DNA from: Promethearchaeota archaeon | GTDB lineage: Archaea; Asgardarchaeota; Lokiarchaeia; Sigyniarchaeales; SOKP01 | Assembly (NCBI GenBank): GCA_016926735.1 | Contig: JAFGOA010000107.1 | Location: 1-40,148, forward strand | Direction: 5' to 3' | Length of the DNA: 40,148 nucleotides | Part shown: positions 1,866-38,700 of the stretch, in pieces | Numbering within the stretch: the stretch's first letter is position 1 | Layout: the number at the start of each line of letters is the position of its first letter | Translations under genes and position numbers: made by a program | The notes under the pieces: generated by a model | Told to the model about the DNA's origin: nothing | Seen by the model: the letters and a program-made list of their open reading frames with translations, nothing else | Databases searched by the model: none

Positions 1866-3179
1866 ATGAATGAAGCTAATCCAATTGAGATATTTGAATA
1901 TGGAAATGTTCCTAAACCAATAGAAATACCTATTGAAAAATTAGAAAAATTTTACTTGGATTTTAAAGAGAAATTAAAAATTAAGCCAAAATACGAAAAA
2001 TATAAGAAATTTAAAGAAAGAATAACAGAACATAATAATTTTAATCCTTCAAATAATATGTTCAAATTAAAGCTAAAGGCAAAATATTACATAGGTATAT
2101 TGAAATTACCAAACAATCAGACTATTATAATTAGACCAAAAGTTGGTGAGGATATTAAATTTATAAAAATGCTTGAATATGTTGATCCTCAATATGCTCA
2201 TATATATTATGAGATTTCTCAAAAAATTACGCCTGAAACTAATTTTTTAAGTATTTTAGTAGATAGATTTATTTCATCAGCTGAAAGATTAATCAAAACA
2301 TCTTTAATAAAAAATTATAAAATAAAAAGAAATAGAGGAACTATTATTAGAGGAAAAATTCTTCAAAAAGAGACTATGCAGAATCCAAATTTTTTAAAAG
2401 GATTAGTAGTCTGTGAATATAATGATTATACTCCAGATATAATAGAAAATCAAATCATAAAGTTAGCTTTAAATAATTTAAGATATATAGCAGATGAAAA
2501 CCAACAAGTTCGAATACGCCAATTATTAGTAGAAATACAAGATATTACTTTAAAAGATTTTAAGATCGAAGATATTGAAAGAATTAAATATAATCATTTA
2601 AATTCTCGATATAAAAAAATCCATGATTATTGTAAATTGATAATTGGTAATTTTTCATTTGGTTTTGAAGTTGGAAAAAATGAATGGTTCAGTATGTTAT
2701 TAAATTCTTGGGATATTTATGAACGTTTTATTAGACAATTATTCAATATTTTTTTAAAAGAATTGATGGGTAAAAATATATCAGTAAAAAAAAAAAAAAT
2801 AGGTCAATGGAATTCCTGCGACAAGCAAAAATTAATTCCTGATATTTTAATTAAACAAAAGAATGAAATATTATTACTAATTGATGCTAAATACAAGTTG
2901 AGATTTAAGATAGGAGATTATCATCAAGGACGTACATATTTACATGAAATTCTTAAGAAACATAAAAGATGTGAGGTAAATTTTAATAAAAATCATCGAA
3001 ATTTATTACTTATATATCCTGTTAATTTCACGAATGAATATAATTTCTTACCAATAGAAAAGGATCCAATAAAAAAATCCGGAATTGTTTATGCTCATTC
3101 TATTGATTTATATCATATTGATAATGATTCTTATTTAAGATCTTGGGTAAAAAGAATTTATAAAAAATTCCTAAAATAA
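1866..3179 (+). CDS. mcrC: McrC-like nuclease subunit of a McrBC system
   Basis: Nuclease partner of McrB, 437 residues, within the usual size for the family. The N-terminal part contains a beta-rich stretch (NQTIIIRPKVG, about residue 80) typical of McrC. The C-terminal part holds the PD-(D/E)xK core: LIPDILI (D near residue 324) followed by LLIDAKYK (D-A-K near 340). Starts 15 bases after mcrB; A-rich codon use matches it. Together they should cleave DNA carrying a modified base, acting against phage or modified plasmid DNA. No methyltransferase is adjacent, as expected for a modification-dependent enzyme. No cassette-boundary motif is seen inside or before this pair, which sets it apart from the region downstream. 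Confidence 0.88.
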   Translation: MNEANPIEIFEYGNVPKPIEIPIEKLEKFYLDFKEKLKIKPKYEKYKKFKERITEHNNFNPSNNMFKLKLKAKYYIGILKLPNNQTIIIRPKVGEDIKFIKMLEYVDPQYAHIYYEISQKITPETNFLSILVDRFISSAERLIKTSLIKNYKIKRNRGTIIRGKILQKETMQNPNFLKGLVVCEYNDYTPDIIENQIIKLALNNLRYIADENQQVRIRQLLVEIQDITLKDFKIEDIERIKYNHLNSRYKKIHDYCKLIIGNFSFGFEVGKNEWFSMLLNSWDIYERFIRQLFNIFLKELMGKNISVKKKKIGQWNSCDKQKLIPDILIKQKNEILLLIDAKYKLRFKIGDYHQGRTYLHEILKKHKRCEVNFNKNHRNLLLIYPVNFTNEYNFLPIEKDPIKKSGIVYAHSIDLYHIDNDSYLRSWVKRIYKKFLK

Positions 3180-3850: not shown

Positions 3851-3925
3851 AATTTTTATTTTTAAACTAAATCTTATTATTTTAAAACTTTTAACATAAA
3901 CAATTTTAATATAATAATCGTGAAA
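3851..3925 (+). repeat. Copy 1 of a ~75-base repeat ending at the boundary motif
   Basis: The stretch AATTTTTATTTTTAAA.. through ..ATCGTGAAA matches 24253-24335 at roughly 84% by hand count over the last 56 bases, with one gap. The match stops right after CGTGAAA: the following bases (AAAACGGA here, TAACTGA there) and everything beyond differ. The other copy follows the stop codon of a small zinc-ribbon membrane gene, so this copy is probably the tail of a lost related unit. Confidence 0.7.
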
Positions 3926-3932
3926 AAACGGA
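3919..3932 (+). repeat. Cassette-boundary motif, degenerate copy (CGTGAAAAAACGGA)
   Basis: The left half CGTGAAA is intact; the right half differs from TAACTGA. A facing TTTCACGA at 3946-3953 gives an inverted pair. It separates the decayed stretch after McrBC from the NurA-HerA-DruA unit. Confidence 0.5.
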
Positions 3933-4093
3933 CTTATATTGGGGGTTTCACGAACTTTTATAATTAATATCAATATCATTATTTTTTCCTTATATAGTAT
4001 AAATCTTATATTATTAGATTTGTTTAATAATAAATAACTCATTTGTTTTCCTATAGTACGAGTATAAGGTATACTCCATCATATTAAATTCTA

Positions 4094-4439
4094 CTAAAGA
4101 AGTATATTAACTTCTTTAATATGATTTTTTATTTCAAATAATTCAAGATTAATATTTTCAGGTGTTATCTCTCTTCTTAATAATGAATATTCTTCTTTTA
4201 GATTGAAATTTTTTATATTTCTATAAAATCTTTTTTTTTTGAAATTTTCTCAATTTTTGTTGATTTATACTCTCAATTCCAATGTAAAGATTAATCTTAA
4301 AAACTTGAATTTTATAATAACCAAGTAATTCTTTTTTTAGCCCTTTTTTATTTATATTCTCTATTTTCACCTTCGATAGAATATTATCAAAATGAGAAAT
4401 TATATTTACATTTTGACAATAAATATTTAAGTAATAGTT
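4094..4439 (-). pseudogene. Decayed minus-strand gene, unrecognised family
   Basis: Read on the minus strand, about 115 codons look like real protein (..FDNILSKVKIEN.., ..LLGYYKIQVFKINLYIG.., ..LLRREITPENINLELF..) but need a one-base frameshift at the ten-base A-run at 4231-4240. The 5' side is closed by an in-frame stop (4440-4442) with no start codon. The C-terminal stop is at 4094. The protein is lysine- and isoleucine-rich with no motif I recognise. It abuts the nurA promoter region head to head. Probably a dead gene left by turnover. Confidence 0.5.
4095..4130. repeat. 9-bp stem-loop followed by T-rich sequence
   Basis: Bases 4095-4103 pair perfectly with 4110-4118 around a 6-base loop, with a T-run (4125-4130) downstream on the + strand. 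A competing pairing joins 4079-4087 with 4116-4124. It lies at the 3' end of the decayed minus-strand gene. It could act as a terminator, but there is no clear + transcript to end. Confidence 0.35.
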
Positions 4440-4468: not shown

Positions 4469-5572
4469 GTTTTTATCACGCCAGTAGAAGTTAATTTTAA
4501 TTTAGAGGATATTCGAAACATTGAGGATATAGCTAAAACCCAAATTCAAAAGTTTAATAATTTACGAGATTTAATTAAAGATTTAGTTTTTGTACCTACT
4601 GATCCTATTGGTCACTATTCTGCTATTACTTACAAATCTATTGATGGAGGTAAAATGGGTATTCATTTTGATCCTTTTGAGTTAGAATTCATTGTAATAA
4701 GTGATTCAAATGGATATGAAATAATGAAATTCATAGTTCCTAATAATGACAATTTAACTAAGAAAGATTTTAAATTTTTAGATAATTTCCATGAAATAAA
4801 TATACTTTCTTCAATTTTAAAGGTTAATTCTATTATAGAAGCTTCAGAAATTCTTAATAATCCTTATACAGCTATGGATCTAGCAGAATATGCTTGTATA
4901 TTTGAAAACTTAATGAAAGATAAAACTGAACCAAAATTATTTATGAAGGATGGTTTATTAAGATCAAAAGCTTTTAAACATGAATTAATGCAAAATTTAC
5001 TTGATATCTTAAAAGAATATCCTAAAAGAAAATTAGTCGGAGTAGCAAAAAGATCAAAAGTTTTAAGTCTTATTTCAACTGCTTTAAGGGTACAAAAAGT
5101 TTTTCCTCCTAATATGACAGGATATGTAGAAATTCCGTTAGATATTGAAAGAATGGCATATAAATGGACAGGAAAAGGAAAAATATCTAAAAATAATCAA
5201 GGACCATTGTCTTATGCTCTGGGTAAATTATATATTGTTAAATTATCAAAAAGAAATAATTTGTTACTAACAATAGAAATTCCTTATGATTATTTGAATA
5301 ATGAATCAATATATAATAATAAAGAAATAAATGAAATAATTGGCCATTTAATAAAAGATTCAATGATGTCTTATCCAATTTTAGGTTATCCGCAAACAAT
5401 AATGAGAGCACATGAAAAAGCAGTTAGATGTGGTTTTACAGGTTCTGTTTGGAAAGATAAAATAATAGAATATATTTTAAGTAATATTGGTGATAGAAGA
5501 TTATCAAAACTAATTAGAAATCAAATTTTTCTTCAAGAAATTGTTAATAAAGGAATTTTAGGAGGAATATAA
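4469..5572 (+). CDS. nurA: NurA-family nuclease without a standard start codon
   Basis: NurA is the 5'-3' nuclease that works with the HerA DNA translocase in archaeal end resection and in some phage-defence systems. The first ATG (4655) falls just after the conserved S-I-D-G-G motif, whose Asp codon (4643-4645) is a metal-binding catalytic residue in the family. The frame is open back to 4469 (an in-frame TAG is at 4466) and the extra residues are NurA-like (..FVPTDPIGHYSAITYKSIDGG). No ATG, GTG or TTG exists in that extension. Either a rare start (for example ATC at 4475 or ACG at 4478) is used on a leaderless transcript from the TATA-like TTATAAAAG (4454-4462), or the start has been lost. 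The GGAGG before the HerA start lies inside the nurA 3' end. Family call good; intactness uncertain. Confidence 0.75.
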   Translation, partial: VFITPVEVNFNLEDIRNIEDIAKTQIQKFNNLRDLIKDLVFVPTDPIGHYSAITYKSIDGGKMGIHFDPFELEFIVISDSNGYEIMKFIVPNNDNLTKKDFKFLDNFHEINILSSILKVNSIIEASEILNNPYTAMDLAEYACIFENLMKDKTEPKLFMKDGLLRSKAFKHELMQNLLDILKEYPKRKLVGVAKRSKVLSLISTALRVQKVFPPNMTGYVEIPLDIERMAYKWTGKGKISKNNQGPLSYALGKLYIVKLSKRNNLLLTIEIPYDYLNNESIYNNKEINEIIGHLIKDSMMSYPILGYPQTIMRAHEKAVRCGFTGSVWKDKIIEYILSNIGDRRLSKLIRNQIFLQEIVNKGILGGI

Positions 5573-5573
5573 A

Positions 5574-7463
5574 ATGAGTGATCATAATGGTAATGTTGTG
5601 GGTTTATTTATTGGATTAAATAGTTCTTCATATGAATATATTGCAAGTATAATAGCTCCATATCAACAAGAATATGCTCCAATTGTCGGAGGATTTATGT
5701 TAATTGAAAGTATAAATGAATATTTAGTAGCAAGAATAATGGATTATGTGCCTAAAGGAGAATTTATGTCATCAATGGGAATAAAATGGCTTTCAGATGT
5801 AGCACTTTCTCCTGAATCAATAGGACAAGATATAAAAACCAGTAAAGTAAGTTATCAAGTAAAAATAAAATTATTAGGGCGTCTAGATAAAAATACTAAT
5901 GAATTCATACCTGGAATTAAAACCATACCACATATAACTAGTAAAGTTGTTCAACCAAAAAAAGAAATAATTGAGATGATATGTAATAAAGCATTAGAGG
6001 ATCAATCTGAAGGTATTGAAATTGGTGAATATTGGCAAAATAAAGACATAAAAATTCATTTTAATCTTGAAGATCTTGTTGGAAAAAGAACTTTTATATT
6101 TGCTCGTGCAGGTTACGGAAAAAGTAATTTAATGAAAGTTATATCTTCAAATTGGATAGATGATTTAGGATCTCTCATTATTTTTGATCCAGAAGGAGAA
6201 TATGCAGTTACAGATAACAAAGATAGACCAGGAATAATGGATAAAAAACCTGCAATTTTAGTAACAAATCGCAATGATGTAAACAAAAAAACTCGATTCA
6301 ATGTTTATAATAAACTTAAATTTGATTTAAGAAAATTTCCTCCCAATTTTATTATTCCAATACTTATTCCAGAAACAAAGCATGAAATGATATTCTTTCA
6401 AAAACTTATGGGGCTTCAACAGAATCCTTCGAACTGGTCGAGACTTGTTGATTATTTAGGAGAAAATCGATGGAGATCTGATCTGGCTGAAGTTGGGAGG
6501 ATTATTGATGTAGAACCAGGTGATTATCAAAATCTTAGACCTATCTTAAATAATCTTATTCATCCAATTGAACAACTACATGATTCTGAATCAAATTTAT
6601 TAGACATTTTAGAAGAAGGCGTGATACAGGATAGTATTATTATTATTGATATTTCATTACTTAATTCTAATACAGCACTTCAATTGAGTTCAACAATTAT
6701 AAGTCATTTTTTTAATAGAAATCAAATTAGATTTACAACAGGAGATAAGGAATTAGCAAAAGTAGTTTTTGTTGTTGAAGAAGCTCAATCAGTAATTGGT
6801 GGCAAAAAAAGTGTTTCAAAATTTGTAGAATTAGCAAAAGAGGGTAGAAAATATCAATTAGGAGCTATTTTTATTACTCAACAACCGGGAAGTATCTCGA
6901 AGGAAATATTAAGTCAAGGAGATAATTTTTTTGTTTTTCATTTACTTAGTAAATCCGATTTAATTACATTACAAAAATGTAATGCTCATTATTCTGATGA
7001 TATATTAACACAGATATTAAATGAGCCAATTAGGGGTAAATCATATATGTGGACATCAAATCAACCATTTGTTTTACCAATCCATATAAAGAATTTTGAA
7101 GATATCGCAAAAGCAAATAATTCTATGAAAATACAAGAAGAAAATAAGATATTAGATCAAATCCTTATGAGAATTGATAATTTAGGGGAAATTGAAGTAC
7201 AAATCTTTAGAAAGATGATAAATATTATTAATGACAATAATTGGGATATACAAAATCGAAGAGAAATTATGATGGATGATAATAAAAAAAAATTATGTCT
7301 TACACTTTTTAAATTATTAGATAATGAAGAAATAGAATATTTAAATCAACAAAATGGTCTAGCAAAAAATAGCGATACAAGTATTCCTTATTCTATAAGC
7401 TATAAGTATATTGGTATTCTTCATGAAAGAGCAAGGATTCATGCTAGTTCTATTGAGGAATAA
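5574..7463 (+). CDS. herA: HerA-like hexameric DNA translocase/ATPase
   Basis: A 629-residue HerA/FtsK-type ATPase expected to form a ring that pumps DNA and loads NurA. The N-terminal beta-rich HAS-barrel region covers about residues 1-150. Walker A (ARAGYGKSN) is near 177-185 and Walker B (VVFVVEEAQ) near 396-404, followed by a sensor region with TQQPGSISKEIL and a C-terminal helical tail. It starts one base after the nurA stop, with GGAGG just upstream, so translation is coupled. It ends 7 bases from the converging DruA-family gene. NurA-HerA beside McrBC and DruA suggests a defence role rather than housekeeping repair, but a chromosomal repair pair cannot be excluded. Confidence 0.9.
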   Translation: MSDHNGNVVGLFIGLNSSSYEYIASIIAPYQQEYAPIVGGFMLIESINEYLVARIMDYVPKGEFMSSMGIKWLSDVALSPESIGQDIKTSKVSYQVKIKLLGRLDKNTNEFIPGIKTIPHITSKVVQPKKEIIEMICNKALEDQSEGIEIGEYWQNKDIKIHFNLEDLVGKRTFIFARAGYGKSNLMKVISSNWIDDLGSLIIFDPEGEYAVTDNKDRPGIMDKKPAILVTNRNDVNKKTRFNVYNKLKFDLRKFPPNFIIPILIPETKHEMIFFQKLMGLQQNPSNWSRLVDYLGENRWRSDLAEVGRIIDVEPGDYQNLRPILNNLIHPIEQLHDSESNLLDILEEGVIQDSIIIIDISLLNSNTALQLSSTIISHFFNRNQIRFTTGDKELAKVVFVVEEAQSVIGGKKSVSKFVELAKEGRKYQLGAIFITQQPGSISKEILSQGDNFFVFHLLSKSDLITLQKCNAHYSDDILTQILNEPIRGKSYMWTSNQPFVLPIHIKNFEDIAKANNSMKIQEENKILDQILMRIDNLGEIEVQIFRKMINIINDNNWDIQNRREIMMDDNKKKLCLTLFKLLDNEEIEYLNQQNGLAKNSDTSIPYSISYKYIGILHERARIHASSIEE

Positions 7464-7470
7464 AAAATAT

Positions 7471-8676
7471 CTAAATCCATAAACTATAATTTTCTTTTTT
7501 CCATTCCAAATATCTTTTATCTCTCTTGGTTCTAGGGATAATCCATCTTCTTTTCATGAATTCATTTATTTCTTCAATTGAAATATCATAATAATTAGGT
7601 TCTTCATTTTGAATTAATACTTGTTTATAATTTTTACATAGTGGAATAATAAATTGTTCACGATTTATATTATGTCTAAGAAAACTCTGTGGTTTCTCTA
7701 TTGATTTTAAAAATTTATGAATTACTTCTCTTTTATTTCTAAAACCAGATCCCCATTCTTTAATTTTTTGAGATGGAAGATAATATTTTGATACAAATGA
7801 AAAAATTTCATTATAGAGAGAACCATGAAATTGAAATTCACCATATCCATTTGAAAAACCACATTTTATAAATTTTTGACCATTAGGAAGTTTTATTCTA
7901 TCATATATTGAACTTTTGCCCAGAGCAGATAGAGTTGATATCATTATTAATTCACCCGTATTTTCTCTCTCTTTAATAAATGATTTTGTTCCTTGATATT
8001 TTTTTTTATAATCCTCCCTAATTTGATTGGAGAAGAGTAGAGAAGCAATTAATTTTCCCCCTAAAATCATATTATATGGTGGAACGGCTCCAATTAAGAA
8101 TCCATCCAATATCATATTAAGATTTTGTTGTTTATCTAGTTTTTTCCATCCAATATAGTTATCTCTTGATTTAATTGAAAATACAGGATCACAAAGACCT
8201 AAAATACCCATAATTTTGTTTGTTGTACTATCAAATATAAGATAGGTCAATCTTTTTCCATATCCACTAGATATTGGGATACTCCAATGAATTTTTATAT
8301 AATTAAATAAATTCCATAATTCGTGACGAGAATCAACGAGTATAATCTTAGGTTTTATTTTATTTGGTTTAATCTCATAACCATTAGCAATATATTCAAG
8401 TAATTTTTTTTCAATAGGTTTTAATTTCTTTTTATACTTTTTTCTCATTGCTTCAACAGCAACTTTATGAAGATTTCTTATATTATTTTTATTATTTTCA
8501 AATATTAATTGTTTATTTTCAATCCAAAATCCATTTCTATGAAAATATGGAAATATTTTTTGATCTAGTATGAATTTATCAAGACAATAATTAATTACAT
8601 TCTCATTTATTTTATCTAATATATTATTTTCATTATTATGATTTATATATTCACTGAAATTGATTTTTAAATCCAT
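7471..8676 (-). CDS. druA: DUF4338 / Druantia DruA-family protein
   Basis: A 401-residue protein with the family hallmarks: ILVDSRHELW near residue 112, RDNYIGW near 171, GAVPPYNMILGGKL in the middle, then a STLSALGKSSIYDR block and an NGYGEF block. DruA is a component of the Druantia anti-phage system, where its biochemical role is not settled. No DruE-type DUF1998 helicase is nearby. Instead it converges on NurA-HerA with only 7 bases between stop codons, and the three sit together between boundary motifs at 3919 and 8892. It may be a stand-alone DruA-like defence gene or the third part of a NurA-HerA system. Confidence 0.78.
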   Translation of the reverse strand: MDLKINFSEYINHNNENNILDKINENVINYCLDKFILDQKIFPYFHRNGFWIENKQLIFENNKNNIRNLHKVAVEAMRKKYKKKLKPIEKKLLEYIANGYEIKPNKIKPKIILVDSRHELWNLFNYIKIHWSIPISSGYGKRLTYLIFDSTTNKIMGILGLCDPVFSIKSRDNYIGWKKLDKQQNLNMILDGFLIGAVPPYNMILGGKLIASLLFSNQIREDYKKKYQGTKSFIKERENTGELIMISTLSALGKSSIYDRIKLPNGQKFIKCGFSNGYGEFQFHGSLYNEIFSFVSKYYLPSQKIKEWGSGFRNKREVIHKFLKSIEKPQSFLRHNINREQFIIPLCKNYKQVLIQNEEPNYYDISIEEINEFMKRRWIIPRTKRDKRYLEWKKENYSLWI

Positions 8677-8891
8677 AAAATCTAATCCCTTTATGAAAAA
8701 TATTATTAAGTAATTATTTGTCTATTTTTAGAATAATAAGAATCTAAATTATTAATAGATTATTTGATCCTTACTTTTAGTATATCTTTATTATTCTAAA
8801 TTTTTTAATAAAAATGATTTAAACTATAAAATTTATGAAAATTATATTAATTTTACATCTCTTCTGTTTGAAAAGTTAAATATAATGGATT

Positions 8892-8905
8892 CGTAAAATA
8901 ACTCA
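8892..8905 (+). repeat. Cassette-boundary motif, variant (CGTAAAATAACTCA)
   Basis: Matches the consensus CGTGAAATAACTGA at 12 of 14 positions, in the same orientation. It lies between the DruA-family gene start and a decayed gene whose stop is 6 bases downstream. Confidence 0.55.
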
Positions 8906-9160: not shown

Positions 9161-9820
9161 TAAAGTATCTTAAAGAAATGATTCTCCTCCTCATGGATTC
9201 GAGTAGATTATTTCCCTTGATTCATGATTTGGATAATATTTAATAGCTATATTCTTCAGCTATTCCTTTTTAGATTACCTAACCATTATTTTAATAGAAA
9301 ATTCTGTTTTTTTATTACTAAAGAGAATACAACTAAAAAATTCATTTTTAAAGAATATTTACTGATATATATGAATTTTTTATAGTTTTTTTAGAATAAT
9401 AGGGAGAATTTTACTACTATTATTTTGCTGTAAAATATAAGTAGAGGATTTCTATTCTTATAATTTAATAGGATTAAAAATAACAAATAATTATTACAAA
9501 ATTATGCCTAATTAACCTATAATAGCTATATAGGAATAGGTATATAGTATATTATATATTCCTTTTAAGAGGCTCATGATATAATTTTCAATGAGGAACA
9601 TTTCTATTATCCGGATATCATAGGCATAAGTGTTATAAATTATTAATATATTGTAATGATAAATACTAAAATATAGCAATATCGATATAAGAACCATATT
9701 ATCTGTCTTTTTTCTTTATATTTTAGTGATATTAATTGATCCTATATTCTGGAATTTATCTTAAGTTTTATAAATAAGAATCTTGTTAATATATTTAAAA
9801 ATGATATTTTTGATATTTAT
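9161..9820. other. Gene-free stretch
   Basis: No intact gene. On the minus strand about 9182-9241 there is a short protein-like run (..IAIKYYPNHESREI..) ended by a stop, possibly the front of the neighbouring remnant. A 61-codon minus frame at 9512-9697 is of low complexity and unsupported. The rest is A/T-rich with simple TATA repeats. Confidence 0.4.
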
Positions 9821-9834
9821 CGTTAAATAACTGA
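9821..9834 (+). repeat. Cassette-boundary motif (CGTTAAATAACTGA)
   Basis: 13 of 14 bases match the consensus. The next ~330 bases are a damaged copy of the sequence that follows the motif at 24900, so the duplicated block starts at the motif. Confidence 0.75.
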
Positions 9835-10418: not shown

Positions 10419-10946
10419 ATGAAAAACTTAAAAGCTCTAAATGTTCCATATTTGGATAAACTAGCAAAAGAATGCAATATTAAAGTTAAAGGTAAAAAGG
10501 ATATTAAGATAAAACAGATATTAGACGCTAAAATCCCAGAGAAGAAATTAGAAACATTATTTCAAAAATATTTAACTGAACAAAAAGAGAAAAAAAAAAG
10601 CCCAAATACTAATAGTGCTCGATTAAAAAATATAGAGAATCAAATTCAATTTATTATGTCAAAAATTAGTCAATTAGAAACAATGATATTAGAACATCAA
10701 GGAAATAATCAACAGTTATCTTTCATAAGATTGGATACTTTAAAAAAAAGAATAAAACAAGAGATATCACCAAAAGAAATGATGAGTGTAGATGATTTGC
10801 TTAATGTAATTAAACAAACAGAATATTCAAAGAAAGATATTGAAACAGCTGTAATTGAATTAATTGATGAGGAAGTACTTGATTTTTCAGAAGGAGCTTC
10901 AAAGGAAAAATTAGATGGTAAAATAGGATTACTCATTAGAAGATAA
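10419..10946 (+). CDS. Small SAP-like, coiled-coil, winged-helix protein (partner of the ATPase-nuclease)
   Basis: A 175-residue protein with no family I can name. Residues 8-35 (VPYLDKLAKECNIKVKGKKD) resemble a SAP/Rho-N-type helix-extended-loop-helix nucleic-acid binding fold. Residues 60-95 are a likely coiled coil. Residues 105-175 look like a winged helix (MMSVDDLLNVIKQTEYSKKD then a VLDFSEG wing). It begins after a TATA-like element and ends 36 bases before the 822-residue ATPase-nuclease gene, so the two form an operon. A DNA-binding adaptor or regulator of the ATPase is the simplest reading; this is inference from arrangement and predicted fold. Confidence 0.7.
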   Translation: MKNLKALNVPYLDKLAKECNIKVKGKKDIKIKQILDAKIPEKKLETLFQKYLTEQKEKKKSPNTNSARLKNIENQIQFIMSKISQLETMILEHQGNNQQLSFIRLDTLKKRIKQEISPKEMMSVDDLLNVIKQTEYSKKDIETAVIELIDEEVLDFSEGASKEKLDGKIGLLIRR

Positions 10947-10982
10947 TAATTTAAAGGTGAATAGATAATTTCTACTCAAAAG

Positions 10983-13451
10983 ATGTTAATGTGGCCTTCC
11001 AATAGAGATAAAGATGAAATTGATAGTAAAATATTTGAAAGTAATCTTAATCCATTTGCTATTGCCAGTTATCATCAAAATCAATCAATAAAATCTGATT
11101 TTGTTGGAAGAAAGAAGGAATTATTTGATTTTAAGGAAAAGATCAAAGTGATCTATAAGGAAAAAGTGTGCAGAGCCTTTAGATTAGAAGGTCCCTCTGG
11201 AGTTGGAAAATCTACTCTATTTAATTATTTAAAGGAGGCGATAGAGGAAGAAAGAGCTAGTGAAAATCCTTCTACAAATTATATTCTTAAAAAATGTGAT
11301 ATCTTCTCTACCTATTTTGTAATTGGAAATAAGATTAATAATTTCTCAGATATTTGGCAACCTATGATTAATGGTCTTACACCTGGATTTGAAAAGGAAT
11401 TAAATAAGGATATTTCCTTACCAGAATATATTATATATAATTGTATATATCAAATGTTTTTATTAGATAGAGAATTATTATCTGAAATTATATGGAAGGA
11501 TTATACAGGAGAAAGACCAAAAAATATTTATAATATAGAACTGGTAGATATAATTGAACCATTGAAAAATCGTGGATCAGAAGGAGTCAAAGATCTTCAG
11601 GAATATTATAAAAATTACAAATTAATTCTTAGGAAAAATTTTAAATTTACAATAAATGAGAATTCATATGAATTGAAAAGAGAAGATAATGAAAAAATCC
11701 ATAATCTTTTTCGAGTGATAAATGAGGATGATCCTGATTTTTATTTAGAATCAATATTAAATAGAAAATCAGAAATATTTACCAGCGATAACGATCTAAT
11801 AGACTATTTTAACGATTTAATGCGTTATTATACGTGTTTTACAAAAAAGCAACCTATTTTGTTAATTGGTATTGATGAAATCGCTAAATCGAAATCAGAA
11901 GACAAAGAAGCTTATTATAGTGATCTAGGTTTGATACTTGTAAGACTTAGAGATTTACTTAATTATGTATTATTTGTGTTTATCTCAACTTCAAAAGATT
12001 GGAAATCCTATGATGATGTCATTAAAGATAATACAGATTTAAAGGGGCAATTATCAGACTTTATAGATCCAATGGTTTTAAGTCAATTACCTATTGAAGA
12101 TCTTATTCAAGTCTTCAGAAATAGAATGGTAGGATTTTGGAGGAATTATTCCACACTTCGACCCCCCGGAGCCCCTTATTATCCGTTCTCAGAAAATCTT
12201 TTTGAATATATATATAGGTATTGCAAAAGAAATTTAAGAGATTCTATAGTCTTTCTTCGAAAATTTTGGAATCATTTTAAATTCAACAAATTTATTCCGA
12301 AACTAGAAACTATGTTTGAATGTATGAGAGAGGTATATAAATTTGAATTAAAAACATTAGATCCTTCGAAATTTCAATCATTTGAGTGGAAAATAATTAA
12401 TAATTCTTTTAATAAACCAGGCAGATTTTCATCCAATGGTGATCGTTCCTCTGCTGTGGAGACTGGATTAGAATTAGCTTGGGAATGTCTATGTCACGAA
12501 AGTCCAAGAACAGTTTGGGATGTAAGAAATAATAAGACAATAAGAACATCTAATAGTAAGAAGAGAAGACCTGATGTTCTTGTGGAATTATTAAGCAATC
12601 TAGGATCGGAATATAGGAGGAATATAGAATTTCAAGTAAAGATGTATAAGAAAAATTCTACTGTTGCACATAAAGATATAAAATCATCAATTCAATTGTT
12701 TAATGAGAAATATACAGATTATCTTTATTTTATTATGACGGGTGGAGGTCTTGATTCGAAAGCTGAAGCTCATGTAAAAGAACTTGAGAAAAAATGGACT
12801 AATCGAATTATAAGACCAATATTAAACACAAATCAAGAAAATGCTCTTTATTTTCTAGCTTTATTTGAAGAAATTTCAGGAAAAAAGTTAGGAGCGAATA
12901 TAAAACATGATATTAAATTAGTTAAAGACATGCTTACAATCATCTTAGGACAAAATGTTGATATTTTTCTAAATAAAATTAAAAATTTACCACATCGAGA
13001 GATTGAAATTGAAGTTATTGAAGATGAAGAATCTGAAGGACAAAAAGTTAAACATAAAGATCAAACAAAATTAAGTGATTTTGAAAAAGAAGATATACAA
13101 AAAAAAGAAAAGAAAATAGAACAATCACAAAGTAGAGAAGAAAAAATACCTTTGAGAACATGGTTAAAAGATTATCCACAATTTAGTTCCTATCGAAATG
13201 AATTGTGTTTTTTATGTCTTTACTTTAAGGATAAAAAAAGAGAAACTGGTGCTGATCAATTTAAATTCTACCCTCCAACCATAATAAGTTATATTATGAA
13301 AGATGTTTCACTCGATAAAAATATATTTGATGGATTAGTTAAATTTATGAGAATAAATGGATTTATTATTAATGAGGCCAAATCCTTTAGAATGACTGAG
13401 AACGGAAGAGAATTATATAAAAAGATAAAAGCAGATAATTATCAATGTTAA
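10983..13451 (+). CDS. P-loop ATPase fused to an Mrr-like nuclease domain and a C-terminal winged helix (candidate defence effector)
   Basis: An 822-residue multidomain protein. FVGRKKEL (about 40-47) followed by Walker A GPSGVGKST (70-78) and Walker B-like ILLIGIDEIAK (about 291-301) mark an AAA/STAND-type ATPase. A helical region follows. Then RRPDVLVEL (about 527-535) and IEFQVKMYKK (about 547-556) match the D..(E)xQxK core of Mrr-type restriction nucleases. An acidic/lysine linker (about 670-715) leads to a C-terminal winged-helix-like region. ATPase plus nuclease plus DNA-binding domain is typical of phage-defence effectors. I do not recognise it as part of a named system. The start follows AAGGTGA about 20 bases upstream; an ATG at 10989 is an alternative. 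Confidence 0.75.
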   Translation: MLMWPSNRDKDEIDSKIFESNLNPFAIASYHQNQSIKSDFVGRKKELFDFKEKIKVIYKEKVCRAFRLEGPSGVGKSTLFNYLKEAIEEERASENPSTNYILKKCDIFSTYFVIGNKINNFSDIWQPMINGLTPGFEKELNKDISLPEYIIYNCIYQMFLLDRELLSEIIWKDYTGERPKNIYNIELVDIIEPLKNRGSEGVKDLQEYYKNYKLILRKNFKFTINENSYELKREDNEKIHNLFRVINEDDPDFYLESILNRKSEIFTSDNDLIDYFNDLMRYYTCFTKKQPILLIGIDEIAKSKSEDKEAYYSDLGLILVRLRDLLNYVLFVFISTSKDWKSYDDVIKDNTDLKGQLSDFIDPMVLSQLPIEDLIQVFRNRMVGFWRNYSTLRPPGAPYYPFSENLFEYIYRYCKRNLRDSIVFLRKFWNHFKFNKFIPKLETMFECMREVYKFELKTLDPSKFQSFEWKIINNSFNKPGRFSSNGDRSSAVETGLELAWECLCHESPRTVWDVRNNKTIRTSNSKKRRPDVLVELLSNLGSEYRRNIEFQVKMYKKNSTVAHKDIKSSIQLFNEKYTDYLYFIMTGGGLDSKAEAHVKELEKKWTNRIIRPILNTNQENALYFLALFEEISGKKLGANIKHDIKLVKDMLTIILGQNVDIFLNKIKNLPHREIEIEVIEDEESEGQKVKHKDQTKLSDFEKEDIQKKEKKIEQSQSREEKIPLRTWLKDYPQFSSYRNELCFLCLYFKDKKRETGADQFKFYPPTIISYIMKDVSLDKNIFDGLVKFMRINGFIINEAKSFRMTENGRELYKKIKADNYQC

Positions 13452-25934: not shown

Positions 25935-26357
25935 ATGGAAGAAATATCAAAGGATTTAGCATGTCCAAATGAACACTGTGAATCCTATGGAATTATTGGA
26001 AAAGATACCATCCTCTTTAGACGTAAATATGGAAATAAACCATCTCAAAATCTTTTTGTATGCAAAACATGTAAAAAAACCTTTTCTGAACGAAAAGGAA
26101 CTCCCTTTTTTGGGTTTCATTTACCTGAAGAGAAAATTATAACAATTATCCGTTGCCTTGTCGAAGGGAATGGCACACGGGCAACTGCTCGTATCTGTAA
26201 TGTCCATCGTGATACAGTGACCAAAATTATCCGTCGATTTGGAACGCACTCAGAACAAATATCTCGTCTCTTCCTTAAGAATTATCCTCTAAAAGAATGT
26301 CAATTAGATGAGATGTGGAGTTTTATTAAAAAAACAAAAAAATCTAACCCCCCTTGA
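25935..26357 (+). CDS. IS1-type transposase, first frame (zinc finger and helix-turn-helix)
   Basis: 140 residues. The N-terminal zinc finger has C10 and C15 with CKTCKK later. A helix-turn-helix (TRATARICNVHRDTVTKII) follows and the frame reaches the first catalytic Asp in QLDEMWSF. It corresponds to InsA plus the first part of InsB in IS1. It must be joined to the downstream frame to give a complete DDE transposase, which requires a +1 shift at the A-rich or six-C run (26324-26353). Confidence 0.8.
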   Translation: MEEISKDLACPNEHCESYGIIGKDTILFRRKYGNKPSQNLFVCKTCKKTFSERKGTPFFGFHLPEEKIITIIRCLVEGNGTRATARICNVHRDTVTKIIRRFGTHSEQISRLFLKNYPLKECQLDEMWSFIKKTKKSNPP

Positions 26358-27066
26358 ATACCAGGAAGGTGAATGTGGAGATGCGTGGATTTGGATTGCG
26401 TTTGATCCTATCCATAAAGTTGTTATAGCGTATACAGTTGGAAAGAGAACACTTTCAAAAGCAAAAGAATTGCTCCATACTCTTCGGAACTGCGTTTCAG
26501 AGGAAATCCCTTATTTCACAAGTGATGAATTAGACTATTATACTTGTGCTATTGCAGAAGAATATGGAATTGAAAAAAGCTTTCCGAACACTGAAAAGCG
26601 AGGACGTCCAAAAAAACCCCTCAAGGAAATCCTTTCGTCACTTGTATATGCCCAAGTTCATAAACACCGGGAGCGGGGCAGAGTAAAAAAGATTGATACC
26701 CGTCTTCTTTTCGGCACCGCATCTCAGATAAAAGGAATTCTTTTAGACTCTGTTGTGAGTAATTATGTTAATACTACGTTTGTTGAGCGAAATAACCGTA
26801 CTATTCGACAACAAAATGGCAGATTTCAGCGTAAGACCTTACAATTTTCCAAGAAAAAGGCATTATTTTCTTCCCAATTGGCCCTTTTTTTTGGATATTA
26901 CCATTTCATTCGTCCCCATCAATCCTTACAGATAAAAAATAACATGCTTTCTGAGAACTGGGAAAAACGGACACCATTTATGAGTGCTGGGATTGTGGAT
27001 CATATCTGGACCTTTCGAGAATTATACTTTTATAAGAGCTATAGAAAGAGAGGAGGTGAAGCTTAA
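26308..27066 (+). CDS. IS1-type transposase, second frame (catalytic DDE part)
   Basis: About 252 codons in the +1 frame relative to the first. It carries WIWIAFDPIHKVVIAYTVG, the second Asp in YFTSDELDYY and the Glu in FVERNNRTIRQ, the remaining DDE residues. The nominal start at 26308 is inside the first frame, so it is probably made as a fusion by frameshifting at AACCCCCCTTG. IS1 normally uses a -1 shift at an A-run; the +1 arrangement is unusual or reflects a one-base deletion or insertion that inactivates it. Confidence 0.75.
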   Translation: MRCGVLLKKQKNLTPLEYQEGECGDAWIWIAFDPIHKVVIAYTVGKRTLSKAKELLHTLRNCVSEEIPYFTSDELDYYTCAIAEEYGIEKSFPNTEKRGRPKKPLKEILSSLVYAQVHKHRERGRVKKIDTRLLFGTASQIKGILLDSVVSNYVNTTFVERNNRTIRQQNGRFQRKTLQFSKKKALFSSQLALFFGYYHFIRPHQSLQIKNNMLSENWEKRTPFMSAGIVDHIWTFRELYFYKSYRKRGGEA

Positions 27067-32773: not shown

Positions 32774-35700
32774 TTATAATTCCGCAGGAAATTTATCAAT
32801 TAATCCCACATAATATTGAGCAATAAATAGAGAATCTAATGTATTTATCAGTCCATCACCATTAACGTCTGCAGCTTCAGGAAAGAAGCCCTCTGGATTC
32901 AATCCTACAAAATATTGAGTTGTGAGTGTGGCATCTAAGGCATTAATTAATCCATCATTATTTACATCACCAAGGGTGATATTAGGATGAACGATTACAT
33001 GACTGTTTATACCAACAGGATTATCTATAGTATCTGTCATTTCATTTGCTAAAGTTAGTATATCTATTGCTAACACACATTCACCTACTCCAATCGTCTC
33101 CCAGGTTATGATGAGAAAATCTAAATTTGGACTTGGAAATGGACCTAATGCATCAAATCCACTCACTCGAGCTACTCCTTCTGAATTATTGATATCAATA
33201 GAACTTATAAATCCATCAGGTCCAGCAATAATATCTACTATCCTTAGTATAGTAGGATTAAAAGTAAATTCAAATCCATATGCAGCAACTCTATGACGTC
33301 CTGAATCTATATATACATGAGTATCAAAGATATCTCCTACTTTTTTATCTGCTACAGAACTGATGCTCACATTTCTCATGGGAATAGGAGTTGTTTTTAC
33401 ATGGCTATTTATGATATAAGTAGTCTCTATAGGTTCTCCAGAATCGTCTATTAAAGAAATTTTATCAAAAGTTATTGCACTTTCACCTACTCCAATTGCT
33501 TTCCAAGATATTGAGAAAAGGAACAGGTTTAAACCAGGGTCTATCCATGACTCAGTATATCCAGCTACTTTTATCCATCCTTCTGAATCATGTTTCTCCA
33601 CAGATGTTATAAATCCAGCTTGTGCACTATAAAAATTCGTTGGAACAACGATATTGGGATCAAAAGTAATGTTAAAATAATATCCAGTTAATTTCTGACT
33701 TCTTGAATCGACATTAACACTTGTAGAGAATGTATCTCCCACATACTTATCCGTAACAGAACTTATCCTGACATCACCATGTACTGTTATATTGCAATTT
33801 ATACCATTAGGAGTACCTATAGTATTTGTGGAAATATCTGCTAAAGTTATTATATCTATTTCAACCATACTTTTCCCTACAGAAATTGCCTTCCATGAGA
33901 TTGTTAGAAAGTCTAAGATTGCACTTGGAAATGGGCCTAATGCATCAAATCCACTCACTCGAGCTACTCCTTCTGAATTATCAATATCAATAGAACTTAT
34001 AAATCCATCTGGTCCAGCAGTAATATCTACTATCCTCAAGATTTTAGGATTAAAATGAAATTCAAATCTATATGCTCCAACTCTCTGAAGTCCTGAATCT
34101 ATATACACATGAGTATCAAATATATCTCCCACAAGCTTATCCGTAGTAGACCCTATCATCACACTTCCAGGTGTCCCCATAATTGGATTAGAATTGATAT
34201 GGATATTATTATCCTCATTAATCTCCAATACATCATTGTAGCAGTCTACATGACACATTAATTTATAGTATCCAGAGGGTAAGGTTATTGTCCCATTACA
34301 GTTTATAGATTTTATTTCGTTATGGTTTAATCCATCAATATAACATGTACCGAGCTCATAAACTTCCTCATTACTTACCGCAGTATATTTGACATAAAAT
34401 CCATTTGCAGTTCCATATCCAAAATTACCGATATTAGCCCATAGATCATAAGAAAAACTGATTTCATCACTTCCAGAGAAAACATTACTAAAATCACATA
34501 AAATATCATCTATAGAATAAAAGTCCGGCAAGTATTTTTGTTTGGTAAGATTTAAAGGATAATACATGATATTATTGTCTTCATTTAGTTCAATAACTCG
34601 ATCATGATAATCTATAACACACATTATTTCATACTCTCCAAATGGTAATGTAATTCGCCCTTCTTCAGTCGAAGATTTTATCTCAAATTTATCTAATCCA
34701 TTAAAACAATCATCCCCCAGATAATATGTATTATCACCTTTAACTGCAATAAAATCAATAGAAAATAGTTCATTAGTTGAAAACCCAAAATTAGAGATGA
34801 TCGTTGATATCTTATAAGTGAAACTTATCTCATCTCCTTCTTCCAAGAAAATATCACTTAATTCACAATCAAGTCTCAAAGGAATAAAGTTTGGTGCATA
34901 TTCTTCTCTCAAAAGTATTACATGATTATTGTTAGTATGGACATTATTATTTTCATTCGATTCAGTTACCTCATTAGCATAATCTATAGTACATATTAAT
35001 TCATATTCCCCAAATGGAACGGTTCTATAGCATCCTCTTATATTATTAATATATTTTACTTCATTTTGGTCCAATCCCCCCACATAACCATAACCTCCTA
35101 GACTATAAACACCTTCATCACTTTTCAAATCATATTGAATCCAAAAGTCTTCTGAAGTTTCACATCCATAATTTTTAACATAAGATGAGATATTATAAGA
35201 GAATTCTATTTCACCATCAATTGTTATACTTGTATCACTTATTATAAGTTCAACATCACTGTAAGGCATAATATCCGGTAGCAAAATATCTTCGGAAACT
35301 ACAAAAGGATAAGAATCACAATAATAATTATTATCATCATCCACTTCATTAATGCTATTATCATAATCTACAGAACAAGCTATTTCATATTGCCCAAATG
35401 GTAAGGTTATTTGTCCTCGACAAGTTGCTAATTTTAGTTCATTAGGATTTAAACCCTCCATATAATATTCTCCTAATACATATATACTATCACTAGTTTT
35501 TATTTCTCCTAATTCATATGGACTTTCACTACTTTTTACTTCTCCTAATTCATATGAACTTTCAATACTTTTTGCTAGATATCGAATATAAAATCCCTCT
35601 GAAGTACCTACCAGTCCTTTATTAAATATCTCAGAGGATATCTCATAATCAAATGTTAATTCATTATCTCTAAAGATAATATTACTTTTTGTAATTTCAA

Positions 35701-38700
35701 TATCATGTGAAATAAGATCTGGAGAAAAATACTCCTCTCTAAGAATTAAAGGATTAGGATTGGTGTGAATATTATTAACCTCCGTCATTTCATACACTTC
35801 ATTATAACAATCTATAGACTGCCCTAATTTATATTCCCCTAATGGTAAGGTTTTTTTTCCTTCACACACTATATTTTTCTGTTTACCACGGTTTAACCCA
35901 TTTATATAGCAGATTCCTAGATCATAAGTTGTATCATTGCTTATTGCTGTATATTGAACAGAAAAACCTGCTGCATCTCTTCCTCCTTGATTATAAACAC
36001 TAGACGATAAACGATAAGAAAACGATACATTATCACCTTCAATAAGAACTTCGCTTAGAGCAATTTCAACTTCATTATTGTTAGATAAAAATGTTAAATC
36101 GACTGGTTCAGATTCTTGTATAATTACAGCAGTAGGATCTCCAAAAAGATTTAAACACGCGCACGCGTGTTCCATGCTTGGATCACCCACTAACCAATTT
36201 GGTTTTTGAAGTATAAAATCCTTTTTTGCATCTAGCAATGCTTTACCAATTTTAAGTATACCCTCTCCAAATTGAGCATCATAAAATTCACGTCTCAAAA
36301 GACAACTCGCAAAATTTGTATTTTCTCCATTATATTCTACCATACCTGTGCTTCCAATAACAGCAAATGCTGCATTTGGAGAAGATAAATATCTACCTCC
36401 AATAGAATATCCCGGATAAGCAAAAACATCACATCCATCAGTATAGAGAAAAAAAGGTTTAGAATTTGCTAGACGATCTATATCATCAGGATATAATAAT
36501 CTCATATTGTACCACCTATTACTATGACCTACATGAGTTATAATATGAATATTATTATTTATTATAGGTATGAGATCTTCTTTATTCCACATAGATTCTC
36601 GATCATAAAGAGTTGTTATATTGTAATATTGATCAAATTGCCGTGTAGTGTAACCATGACTAAGACAAAAACCATTTGTTTCATTATTATAAATTAATTC
36701 ATCTAATTCATAACTACCCCAATATGGGATGCCCTCAAAAGTACCCCCATATTCACCTACTATTAAAACACTATATAAATAATCATCATCTCTACTTTCC
36801 ATTTCCAACTCATGGAGAATTGTTTTTCTTATGAAGTTTGAAAGCTCCTCTTCTGTATCAACAGGAGCTCTTCCTACTGCGACTTCTGTGTAACTATCAT
36901 GGGTAAAAAAAAATCTCCAATTGTCTCTATCGTCTTTAAATTCACCATAGTTCCCATCATAATCAGCATCCCAAGAACCATCTAAGTAAGCGTAATATAG
37001 ATCCGTATAAGTAAATACTTCATCTATGTAAAACATCCTCATAGGTACCTCATTTTCATCCCCTATTATAAAGACATACTCGGTACACCAAGAATAATAG
37101 GCATCTTTTATAAACTCTCTTATTTTTTCTTCTTCGTCCCTAAAATATTTATATTCTGCGTAAATTTCCTCAATAGTTATAATTATAGGATTATATCCTT
37201 GAAAAGATTTATACTCAATTAAATCTTGTAAAGTATATGGTCCATTGGAATATTTTAAGAATTTATTAGTAATAATTACATAGTCATGTGGCCCTTGATC
37301 TTTATCAAAAATACTCTGTTGTGGTCTAATAATTACCATTGGATCTCCAAACACTTCATAACCTAAAAAATCTTCAACAAGACGATAAGAAGTATCATAT
37401 GATTTTAAGACATCATATTTTGCGTCGGTTAATGCCCTACTAATCTCATCTATACCCTCTCCGAATATAGCATCATAGAATTCACGATATAACTTCTGCC
37501 CTGGAATATCTGTAGGATCATCTGGCGTATAAGTAGGAAAACTCCATGCATATTCTGAAGTTCCAATTGCAGCAAATGCTCCATTTGGAGAAGTTATTAG
37601 ACGCTCTCCTATAGAATCATATGTAAAATGGAATCCATTAGCATTGTGAATATAATTCTGGTCAATCTCATCAGCATAATTAAAGGCATAACTTTGATAG
37701 CTATATAGAAAGAATGGTTTCTTGACGTTTATATATGGAATATCATTTATATTCAGTTTCATCATATTATCATGTAGGCTATTAAGTTCATCTTCCCAAT
37801 AAACATAACCTGGTCCATATCCATCTTCAGTCGCAGTACAAAATGACGTCTCTGGACGTCCAAAATGATTTAGTATATGCACCCCATTGTTGCTCTCAAT
37901 AATATCTAATAAAGCATATGGAGTCCACGTTTTAACATAGGGATAATTGTAATTTGAGCGTTCATAAAGAGTCTTAAAGGTATACTCATTAGAAATCTTC
38001 CTTGTTTGATACCCATTAGCAGAACAATACTCATATCCATTATACATATATAATTGGTCCAAATAATCACCACCGTATACTGCTATTGGATCACCAGGAT
38101 CAGAACCCGGATCTAGTTGGTATCCATAAAATTCACCTACCATCAAACCATTATATAGATAATTAGTATTGTAATTTCTTAATTCTTGTTCATGAGCGAG
38201 GGTTTTTCTCACGAAATTTGAAACCTCCACTACTGAACCAACAGGGGCTCTCCCAAGATAGACATCAGCATGATAACCCCAAATCGCTTGGTTCCGTAGT
38301 ATCTCCCAATCCTCTACCTCACCATATACACGATTATTATTATCATCCCAATCATTATTTATAGTTGCATAATATTGATCTGAATAATAAGTTACATCAT
38401 CTGGACCCCATTCTTGCCCTGGTGGAGGGTCACCTCCTGAACAAAAATACCTTGGAGGGATAATATTTGAATCTCCTCCTAAAAGTACATATTGAAGGCC
38501 CCAACCAAAATACTTATCTACTATAAATGCTCGTATTTTTTCTGCATAATCTCTCCCATCATAACGGGAATATATCTCTTCAACAGTCACTATTGTTGCG
38601 CTAATACCTTGTGCAATTTTACTGTCAATAAGAGTATGAAATGAATATGCTCCATTATAATCTTTTAGGTCCTTATTAGTAATAATAGCATATGTAAAAA

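What the first reader, a model, noticed from the sequence alone, without database searches (positions are those of the whole stretch)
4469..8676. NurA-HerA facing a DruA-family gene within one unit
NurA and HerA are coupled, and a DUF4338/DruA gene converges on them with 7 bases between stops. The trio sits between motif copies at 3919 and 8892. Druantia normally couples DruA with a large helicase; HerA may take that place here.
Basis: partly seen in the sequence, partly recalled or inferred. Interest (0 to 1): 0.58.

Follow-up and report, generated by a model that had tools for sequence, protein, structure and literature searches.

The report
NurA-HerA genes paired with DruA
Three genes - a DNA motor, a nuclease and a defence-linked protein called DruA - sit together here and again in distantly related archaea and on bacterial-type contigs, so they probably form one anti-virus or DNA-policing unit that I did not find described.

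Summary
In detail: accessory NurA (frame 4469-5572 +), HerA (5574-7463 +) and DruA (7471-8676 -), 7 bases between the HerA and DruA stops. The proposed test succeeds. Of 16 archaeal genomes with a DruA match over the Pfam cut-off (draws of 294, 389 and 392 genomes), 9 carry the strong, Druantia-type DruA. Six of these lie beside NurA-HerA (one with a gene between), two in Druantia-like operons, one at a contig end. Two IMG/VR contigs carry DruA-NurA-HerA operons. The convergent layout recurs twice; other loci are co-directional. Two very different HerA/NurA lineages are involved, and HerA-1-linked DruAs are not one clade (p-AU 0.005): the pairing is recurrent. No Druantia helicase lies beside the trios.

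Among solved structures HerA and NurA match TdpA and TdpB best. DruA's model has a GNAT fold; phage Mu Mom, a DNA modifier, ranks first but ties with other GNATs. My reading: a TdpAB-like motor-nuclease with DruA in the modifier or specificity seat. Linkage is shown; mechanism is inferred. Caveats: NurA lacks a standard start codon; motif copy 8891 is doubtful.

The parts
4469..5572 (+). Accessory NurA-family nuclease (open frame; likely start near the ATC at 4475; the first ATG, at 4655, would lose the DGGK motif)
   Evidence: Pfam NurA 1.1e-5; 50% identical to NurA of L060 over 358 aa; best solved relative TdpB, profile E 8.4e-6. A separate NurA is on contig C110.
5574..7463 (+). HerA-family DNA-translocase ATPase (clade 1)
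   Evidence: Pfam DUF87 7.5e-18, PADLOC HerA; best solved relative TdpA 2.6e-23, then 3.4e-14.
7471..8676 (-). DruA (DUF4338), GNAT-fold protein, convergent with HerA
   Evidence: Pfam DruA 2.4e-89; AF2 model pLDDT 80; GNAT structures and phage Mu Mom as best VIA matches.
4010..4213 (-). Decayed DruA-like remnant with internal stops
   Evidence: the genome search E 3.2e-4; profile E 6.2e-5 against 5.4 for the best reversed-sequence hit.
3918..3932 (+). Left copy of the repeated motif, probable cassette border
   Evidence: 84% identity of the 50 bases upstream to those of copy 24328.
8891..8905 (+). Putative right copy of the motif, doubtful
   Evidence: no flank similarity to any other copy.
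9820..9834 (+). Next motif copy to the right, well supported
   Evidence: 1 mismatch; 90% identity of the 50 bases downstream to those of copy 24899.

Best explanation
The three genes are one horizontally mobile module, most likely a defence or DNA-surveillance system. Shown: recurrent adjacency of DruA with two divergent NurA-HerA lineages in three archaeal groups and on two IMG/VR contigs; an accessory NurA; nearest solved relatives TdpA and TdpB for the window's HerA/NurA lineage; a GNAT fold for DruA. Inferred: HerA (hexamer) pumps DNA into NurA, which degrades it; DruA is the partner that decides which DNA is spared or attacked. My preferred version is that DruA puts a mark on host DNA (a GNAT-type base modification, as phage Mu Mom does) and HerA-NurA destroys unmarked DNA, a TdpABC-like division of labour with DruA where TdpC would be.
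For: Linkage. Layout: window, L060 and L126 convergent with gaps of 7, 4 and 6 bases; L074 and L050 co-directional with 3-base gaps; L129 DruA-X-NurA-HerA; L071 and L101 DruA-NurA-HerA. More than one pairing: HerA-1-linked DruAs held as one clade are rejected, p-AU 0.005. Defence-type neighbours: McrBC, MTase-Mrr in L060, C5-MTase, Vsr and UvrD-nuclease in L074. TdpA/TdpB best solved matches. GNAT fold: and PMC10853773, which calls DUF4338 a GNAT domain (passages read). DruA also stands alone in phage-like contigs L100 and L103, L103 with a phage terminase, as a virus-borne DNA modifier would.
Against: NurA-HerA of both lineages also occurs without DruA: G007, G066, G067, G255 and L092-L094, so DruA is not obligatory; in G007 an HNH protein follows HerA. 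By the tie rule, Mom (Z 10.0) is not separable from ordinary GNATs (9.2 and below); DruA and Mom share no significant profile match, and the Ser of Mom's inactive S124A mutant has no obvious counterpart in DruA by eye. No modification was measured. The clade-2 HerA profile does not favour TdpA. The window's NurA start is unclear. PMC10853773 reads DUF4338 in DndF as a possible back-up effector acting on proteins.
Confidence: 0.45

Rival explanations
1. Druantia-like system in which DruA is a sensor or DNA-binding adaptor and HerA-NurA replaces the DruE helicase as effector; no DNA modification is involved.
For: The DruA is of the Pfam and PADLOC DruA type; plasmid relatives lie in operons with a large DEAD helicase; no MZB helicase in G294, G578 or G1040.
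Against: I saw no DruB- or DruC-like order beside the trios. DruAs of NurA-HerA loci and of Druantia-type loci largely separate on the tree (NH label 2 changes against a shuffled mean of 5.3; 1 of 500 shuffles as low). A GNAT fold suggests catalysis.
Confidence: 0.25
2. DruA is a toxic or regulatory acyltransferase (back-up effector) acting on a protein, released when NurA-HerA fails or engages.
For: GNAT fold; DUF4338 fused to DndF is read that way in PMC10853773.
Against: Stand-alone DruA in phage-like contigs is easier to explain as a DNA modifier than as a toxin.
Confidence: 0.15
3. Ordinary neighbours in a cassette or defence island: DruA and NurA-HerA are independent cargo that happen to touch.
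For: The window is cassette-like, with a repeated motif, a decayed DruA copy and McrBC; both partners occur separately elsewhere.
Against: Adjacency in 6 of 9 strong archaeal DruAs from three groups, gaps of 3-7 bases in five of them, and coincidence of clade-1 NurA and strong DruA in the same 2 of 389 genomes (about 1e-5 for genome co-occurrence alone).
Confidence: 0.06
4. A DNA-repair or end-resection accessory rather than defence.
For: NurA-HerA is a classical end-resection pair (established; titles and abstracts); in G007 a calcineurin-like phosphoesterase and an SbcC/Rad50-like gene lie upstream.
Against: Patchy presence, a second NurA elsewhere in the genome, defence-type neighbours, DruA partner.
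Confidence: 0.09

Closest known systems
TdpABC (TdpA HerA-like ATPase, TdpB NurA-like nuclease, TdpC phosphorothioation enzyme; PDB 8wet, 8wfd, 8y1k; the roles are recalled, no paper on it was found in the library)
   Same: The window's HerA and NurA profiles match TdpA and TdpB best among solved structures; three-gene motor, nuclease and third-enzyme plan.
   Different: No PAPS-reductase family gene found anywhere in G000 or G578; DruA, a GNAT-fold protein, stands beside the pair instead.
Druantia type I (DruABCDE)
   Same: The same DruA family by Pfam and PADLOC.
   Different: No DruE-type helicase beside the trios, and no MZB helicase found at all in G294, G578 or G1040; NurA-HerA instead.
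Archaeal NurA-HerA DNA end-resection complex
   Same: HerA translocase plus NurA nuclease in tandem.
   Different: Accessory, diverged copy; the genome has another NurA on C110; DruA linked.
HerA/FtsK capture systems and DndFGH (PMC10853773, passages read)
   Same: HerA/FtsK ATPases captured into defence; DUF4338 (GNAT) occurs there as an N-terminal fusion to DndF; the haloarchaeal loci L091 and L132-L134 look like this type.
   Different: Here DruA is a separate gene and the nuclease is NurA; NurA occurs 0 times in that paper's main text.
Phage Mu Mom
   Same: GNAT-fold DNA-modifying enzyme; top VIA match to the DruA model, Z 10.0, 179 residues aligned, 3.7 A.
   Different: No sequence relation; tied with other GNATs; activity untested.

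Membership tests
Druantia (type I) | DruA (DUF4338) | tested here: met
Druantia (type I) | Large DruE (YprA-type) helicase encoded beside DruA | tested here: not met
   None in the window near DruA. MZB-domain search of 6 trio genomes: none in G294, G578, G1040; in G000 only on C18 and C168, not C147; in G157 and G947 on contigs other than the trio's. The C168 frame follows a methylase-like frame, not DruA/B/C (by eye).
TdpABC | HerA-like TdpA and NurA-like TdpB | tested here: met
   Similarity, not identity: profile E 2.4e-32 to TdpA and 8.4e-6 to TdpB, best of all solved chains.
TdpABC | TdpC phosphorothioation enzyme (taken as a PAPS-reductase-family protein, recalled) beside TdpAB | tested here: not met
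   PF01507: no match in G000 or G578; in G294, G157, G1040 and G947 only on contigs other than the trio's.
Canonical NurA-HerA repair complex | The genome's ubiquitous NurA copy | tested here: not met
   NurA matches in 52 of 58 genomes searched; G000's stronger match is on C110 (61 bits against 24.9 for this copy).
GNAT acetyltransferases | GNAT fold | tested here: met
   AF2 model pLDDT 80.2; GNATs make up nearly all VIA rows, Z 8.4-10; Foldseek alone E 0.04 at best; PMC10853773 agrees.
Mom-type DNA modifiers | DNA base modification | not testable with these tools
   Needs nucleoside mass spectrometry; hhalign to Mu Mom E 0.67.
Anti-phage defence system | Protection against phage | not testable with these tools
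   Only neighbourhood evidence here.

The most novel reading that the evidence does not exclude
NurA-HerA-DruA is an unnamed restriction-modification system of archaea and bacteria in which DruA is a GNAT-fold DNA-modifying enzyme that marks self and HerA-NurA pumps and shreds unmarked DNA. If so, DruA would also be the modifier in Druantia type I and in phages that carry it alone, giving DUF4338 its first defined chemistry.
Probability: 0.3. Interest if true: 0.85.

Novelty: new variant of a known kind. Interest (0 to 1): 0.62.

Why it matters
The role of DruA in Druantia is, as far as I know, unexplained. Finding DruA with a compact, well-understood motor-nuclease pair, free of the large Druantia helicase, gives a small system in which DruA's job can be tested directly. 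It also adds a defence candidate in a deep archaeal lineage and a second third-gene option for Tdp-like HerA-NurA pairs.

Tried and rejected
Chance adjacency: rejected by the surveys. DruA as a transposase of an insertion element bounded by inverted repeats: no flanking terminal repeats around DruA stood out, one intact copy in the genome, no support. The ~200-base remnant at 4010-4213 is 28% identical to the intact DruA over its short match, so it is not a recent duplicate.

HerA and NurA profiles in IMG/VR: the clade-1 scans found no relatives. NurA structure prediction from two sequences failed (pLDDT 33.6) and was not used. phmmer with the canonical NurA found no solved structure, so 'TdpB rather than NurA' rests on the three-sequence profile only; a single canonical NurA is not an equal control. 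A plasmid search with the window HerA gave two weak partial hits. Mom compared with DruA by hhalign: not significant. Tyrosine integrases in G000, G001 and G033 lie on contigs other than those where I had seen motif clusters, so no enzyme is assigned to the motif array.

Limits of the counts: 7 of the 16 over-cut-off genomes carry only distant or fused DruA-like proteins and none showed NurA/HerA in the stretch fetched, but two of those contigs (G695, G1028) are only about 3.2 kb. G469 is below the cut-off and was not examined. 6 of 13 plasmid records with DruA were inspected, none with NurA/HerA by my profiles; 7 were not. The 294-genome draw runs from the same genus to the same domain and overlaps the 392-genome draw by at least three genomes. 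The NurA clade-1 search was run on the 294 and 389 draws only. Gene names in L072/L073 as Druantia type I rest on gene order and sizes like those of the annotated Nitrosococcus operon, not on a profile for each gene. In the DruA trees I left out IMGVR045902, and also the long-branched G157 and G947.
Full report
WHAT IS THERE. The window is the whole of contig C147 of a 3.88 Mb genome; that it is an Asgard archaeon is my inference from gene content and composition, not from a call. Between an McrB/McrC-type pair (81-1850 and 1866-3179) and a two-gene set with a large ATPase-like protein (10419-13451) lie NurA (4469-5572 +), HerA (5574-7463 +) and DruA (7471-8676 -), all confirmed by Pfam and, for HerA and DruA, PADLOC. 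NurA's frame opens right after a stop codon, and the only standard start (4655) would remove the conserved DGGK motif. Four of six clade-1 NurAs keep that motif as DGG[KR]; G1040 and G067 do not in that exact form. Relatives start near the ATC at 4475. This copy may therefore use a rare start, or be damaged or misread.

THE BORDERS. A motif (TCGTGAAATAACTGA and variants) recurs on one strand of the window: 10 strict matches against 0.14 expected. The 15-base pattern with at most one mismatch occurs 15 times in this genome and 12 in its sister G001, against 0 for the reversed control in both. Copy 3918 is secure by flank similarity; copy 8891 is not. The trio therefore sits in a cassette-like array, but 'between two copies' is certain only for 3918 and 9820.

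DOES DRUA TRAVEL WITH NURA-HERA? Nine of the 16 carry a strong Druantia-type DruA (E below 1e-50). Neighbourhoods: G000 (window), G294 (L060, found in the species-genome scan) and G1040 (L126) have NurA, HerA and DruA in the same convergent layout, with 7, 4 and 6 bases between stops. G578 (L074) and G157 (L050) have them co-directional with 3-base gaps. G947 (L129) has DruA, a 1054-aa Sacsin/NOV_C protein, NurA and HerA in a row. G745 and G904 have Druantia-like operons, with a DEAD/MZB helicase shown for G904. G124 ends inside DruA. In IMG/VR, 7 distinct contigs carry DruA: 2 with NurA and HerA (L071, L101), 2 with Druantia type I gene order (L072, L073) and 3 without either (L100, L103, and L104, whose stretch ends just after DruA).

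IS IT ONE INHERITED ACCIDENT? No. The HerA/NurA pairs belong to two very distant clades. The DruAs linked to HerA clade 1 do not form one clade (p-AU 0.005). Yet DruAs of NurA-HerA loci and of Druantia-type loci cluster by partner (2 changes against a shuffled mean of 5.3; 1 of 500 shuffles as low). DruA has met NurA-HerA more than once and stayed. Within the 389-genome draw, the clade-1 NurA profile finds exactly the two genomes with a strong DruA. Against a strict bond, in the 294 draw 4 of 5 genomes with a clade-1 NurA match (G007, G066, G067, G255) have no DruA, and three plasmid clade-2 pairs have none nearby. In G007 an HNH protein follows HerA by 22 bases.

WHAT DO THE PARTS DO? HerA: best solved relative TdpA (single sequence 2.6e-23, next 3.4e-14; profile 2.4e-32 against 5.9e-18 for HerA 4d2i). 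NurA profile: TdpB is the only solved match below 0.01 (8.4e-6). The clade-2 HerAs do not favour TdpA. DruA: the AF2 model (pLDDT 80.2) gives GNATs almost throughout the VIA list, headed by phage Mu Mom (8bv8, Z 10.0, 179 residues, 3.7 A) with the next at 9.2, which counts as a tie. Plain Foldseek finds acetyltransferases only at E about 0.04. PMC10853773 independently calls DUF4338 a GNAT domain (passages read). All nine aligned DruAs keep W131, S132, P134, D163, P164, R171, D172, G176, W177, P199, P200, Y201, K208, Y227, S255, Y258 and R260. By eye Y258 sits where GNATs carry their general-acid Tyr; that is inference.

HOW IT LIKELY WORKS. Inferred: HerA-NurA is the DNA-degrading engine; DruA is the enzyme that tells self from non-self, most attractively by modifying DNA. 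Supporting context: restriction- or helicase-type neighbours in four loci (McrBC here; MTase-Mrr in L060; C5-MTase, Vsr and UvrD-nuclease in L074; a ResIII-type helicase in L101), a serine recombinase upstream in L101, and lone DruAs in phage-like contigs near PAPS-reductase-like and, in L103, ParB-like genes. No PAPS-reductase family gene was found in G000 or G578, so DruA is not an add-on to a TdpC-type enzyme of that family there, and no MZB helicase was found in G294, G578 or G1040, so DruA works there without a DruE (some of these genomes are incomplete drafts).

NOVELTY. In the open-licence PMC library, DUF4338 is in 3 papers. Of 77 papers holding at least two of DruA, HerA and NurA, none of the 20 listed holds DruA, and since papers with more terms are listed first, none holds all three. 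The passages read in PMC12458937 and PMC11090510 do not describe the trio. Subscription papers and preprints outside PMC are not covered. I call it a new variant of a known kind: a Tdp-like NurA-HerA core with a Druantia protein.

Noticed in passing
window 3918-32135; also G000 C222, C161, C25 and G001 C34, C229: Cassette-like array: motif TCGTGAAATAACTGA on one strand between small gene sets (Fic, MazE/PIN, DUF433/DUF5615, DMP19, NurA-HerA-DruA). Enriched in G000 and G001; a variant ending CCGA clusters in G033. No tyrosine integrase match on these contigs.
   Followed up: partly
window 27413, 30612, 31423: A second element, CGTGAAACAGTTA and one near copy, in the same intergenic regions; its right half is the reverse complement of the main motif's TAACTG (by eye).
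   Followed up: no
window 25935-27066: IS1-like transposase split into two overlapping frames, at 37% GC against about 25% around it, inserted between two motif copies.
   Followed up: no
L075, L076 (G374 contigs C182, C121): Tandem pairs of distant DruA-like genes; the L075 contig also carries DnaB-like and PolB-like frames (by eye), so it looks viral.
   Followed up: partly
L087:11617-12861 (G007): HNH endonuclease-domain protein 22 bases after a clade-1 HerA, where DruA stands in other loci: a possible alternative third gene.
   Followed up: partly
L129:3404-6568 (G947): 1054-aa Sacsin/NOV_C protein inside a DruA-NurA-HerA operon.
   Followed up: partly
L100, L103 (IMG/VR): Lone DruA genes near PAPS-reductase/DUF3440 and, in L103, ParB-like and terminase genes; possible phage DNA-modification genes.
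   Followed up: partly
L137:4202-9511 (G000 contig C168): 1769-aa MZB-domain helicase after a methylase-like frame, perhaps an ARMADA-like system (by eye).
   Followed up: no
window 32774-38890: 2038-aa open frame on the - strand at about 32% GC, higher than the rest.
   Followed up: no
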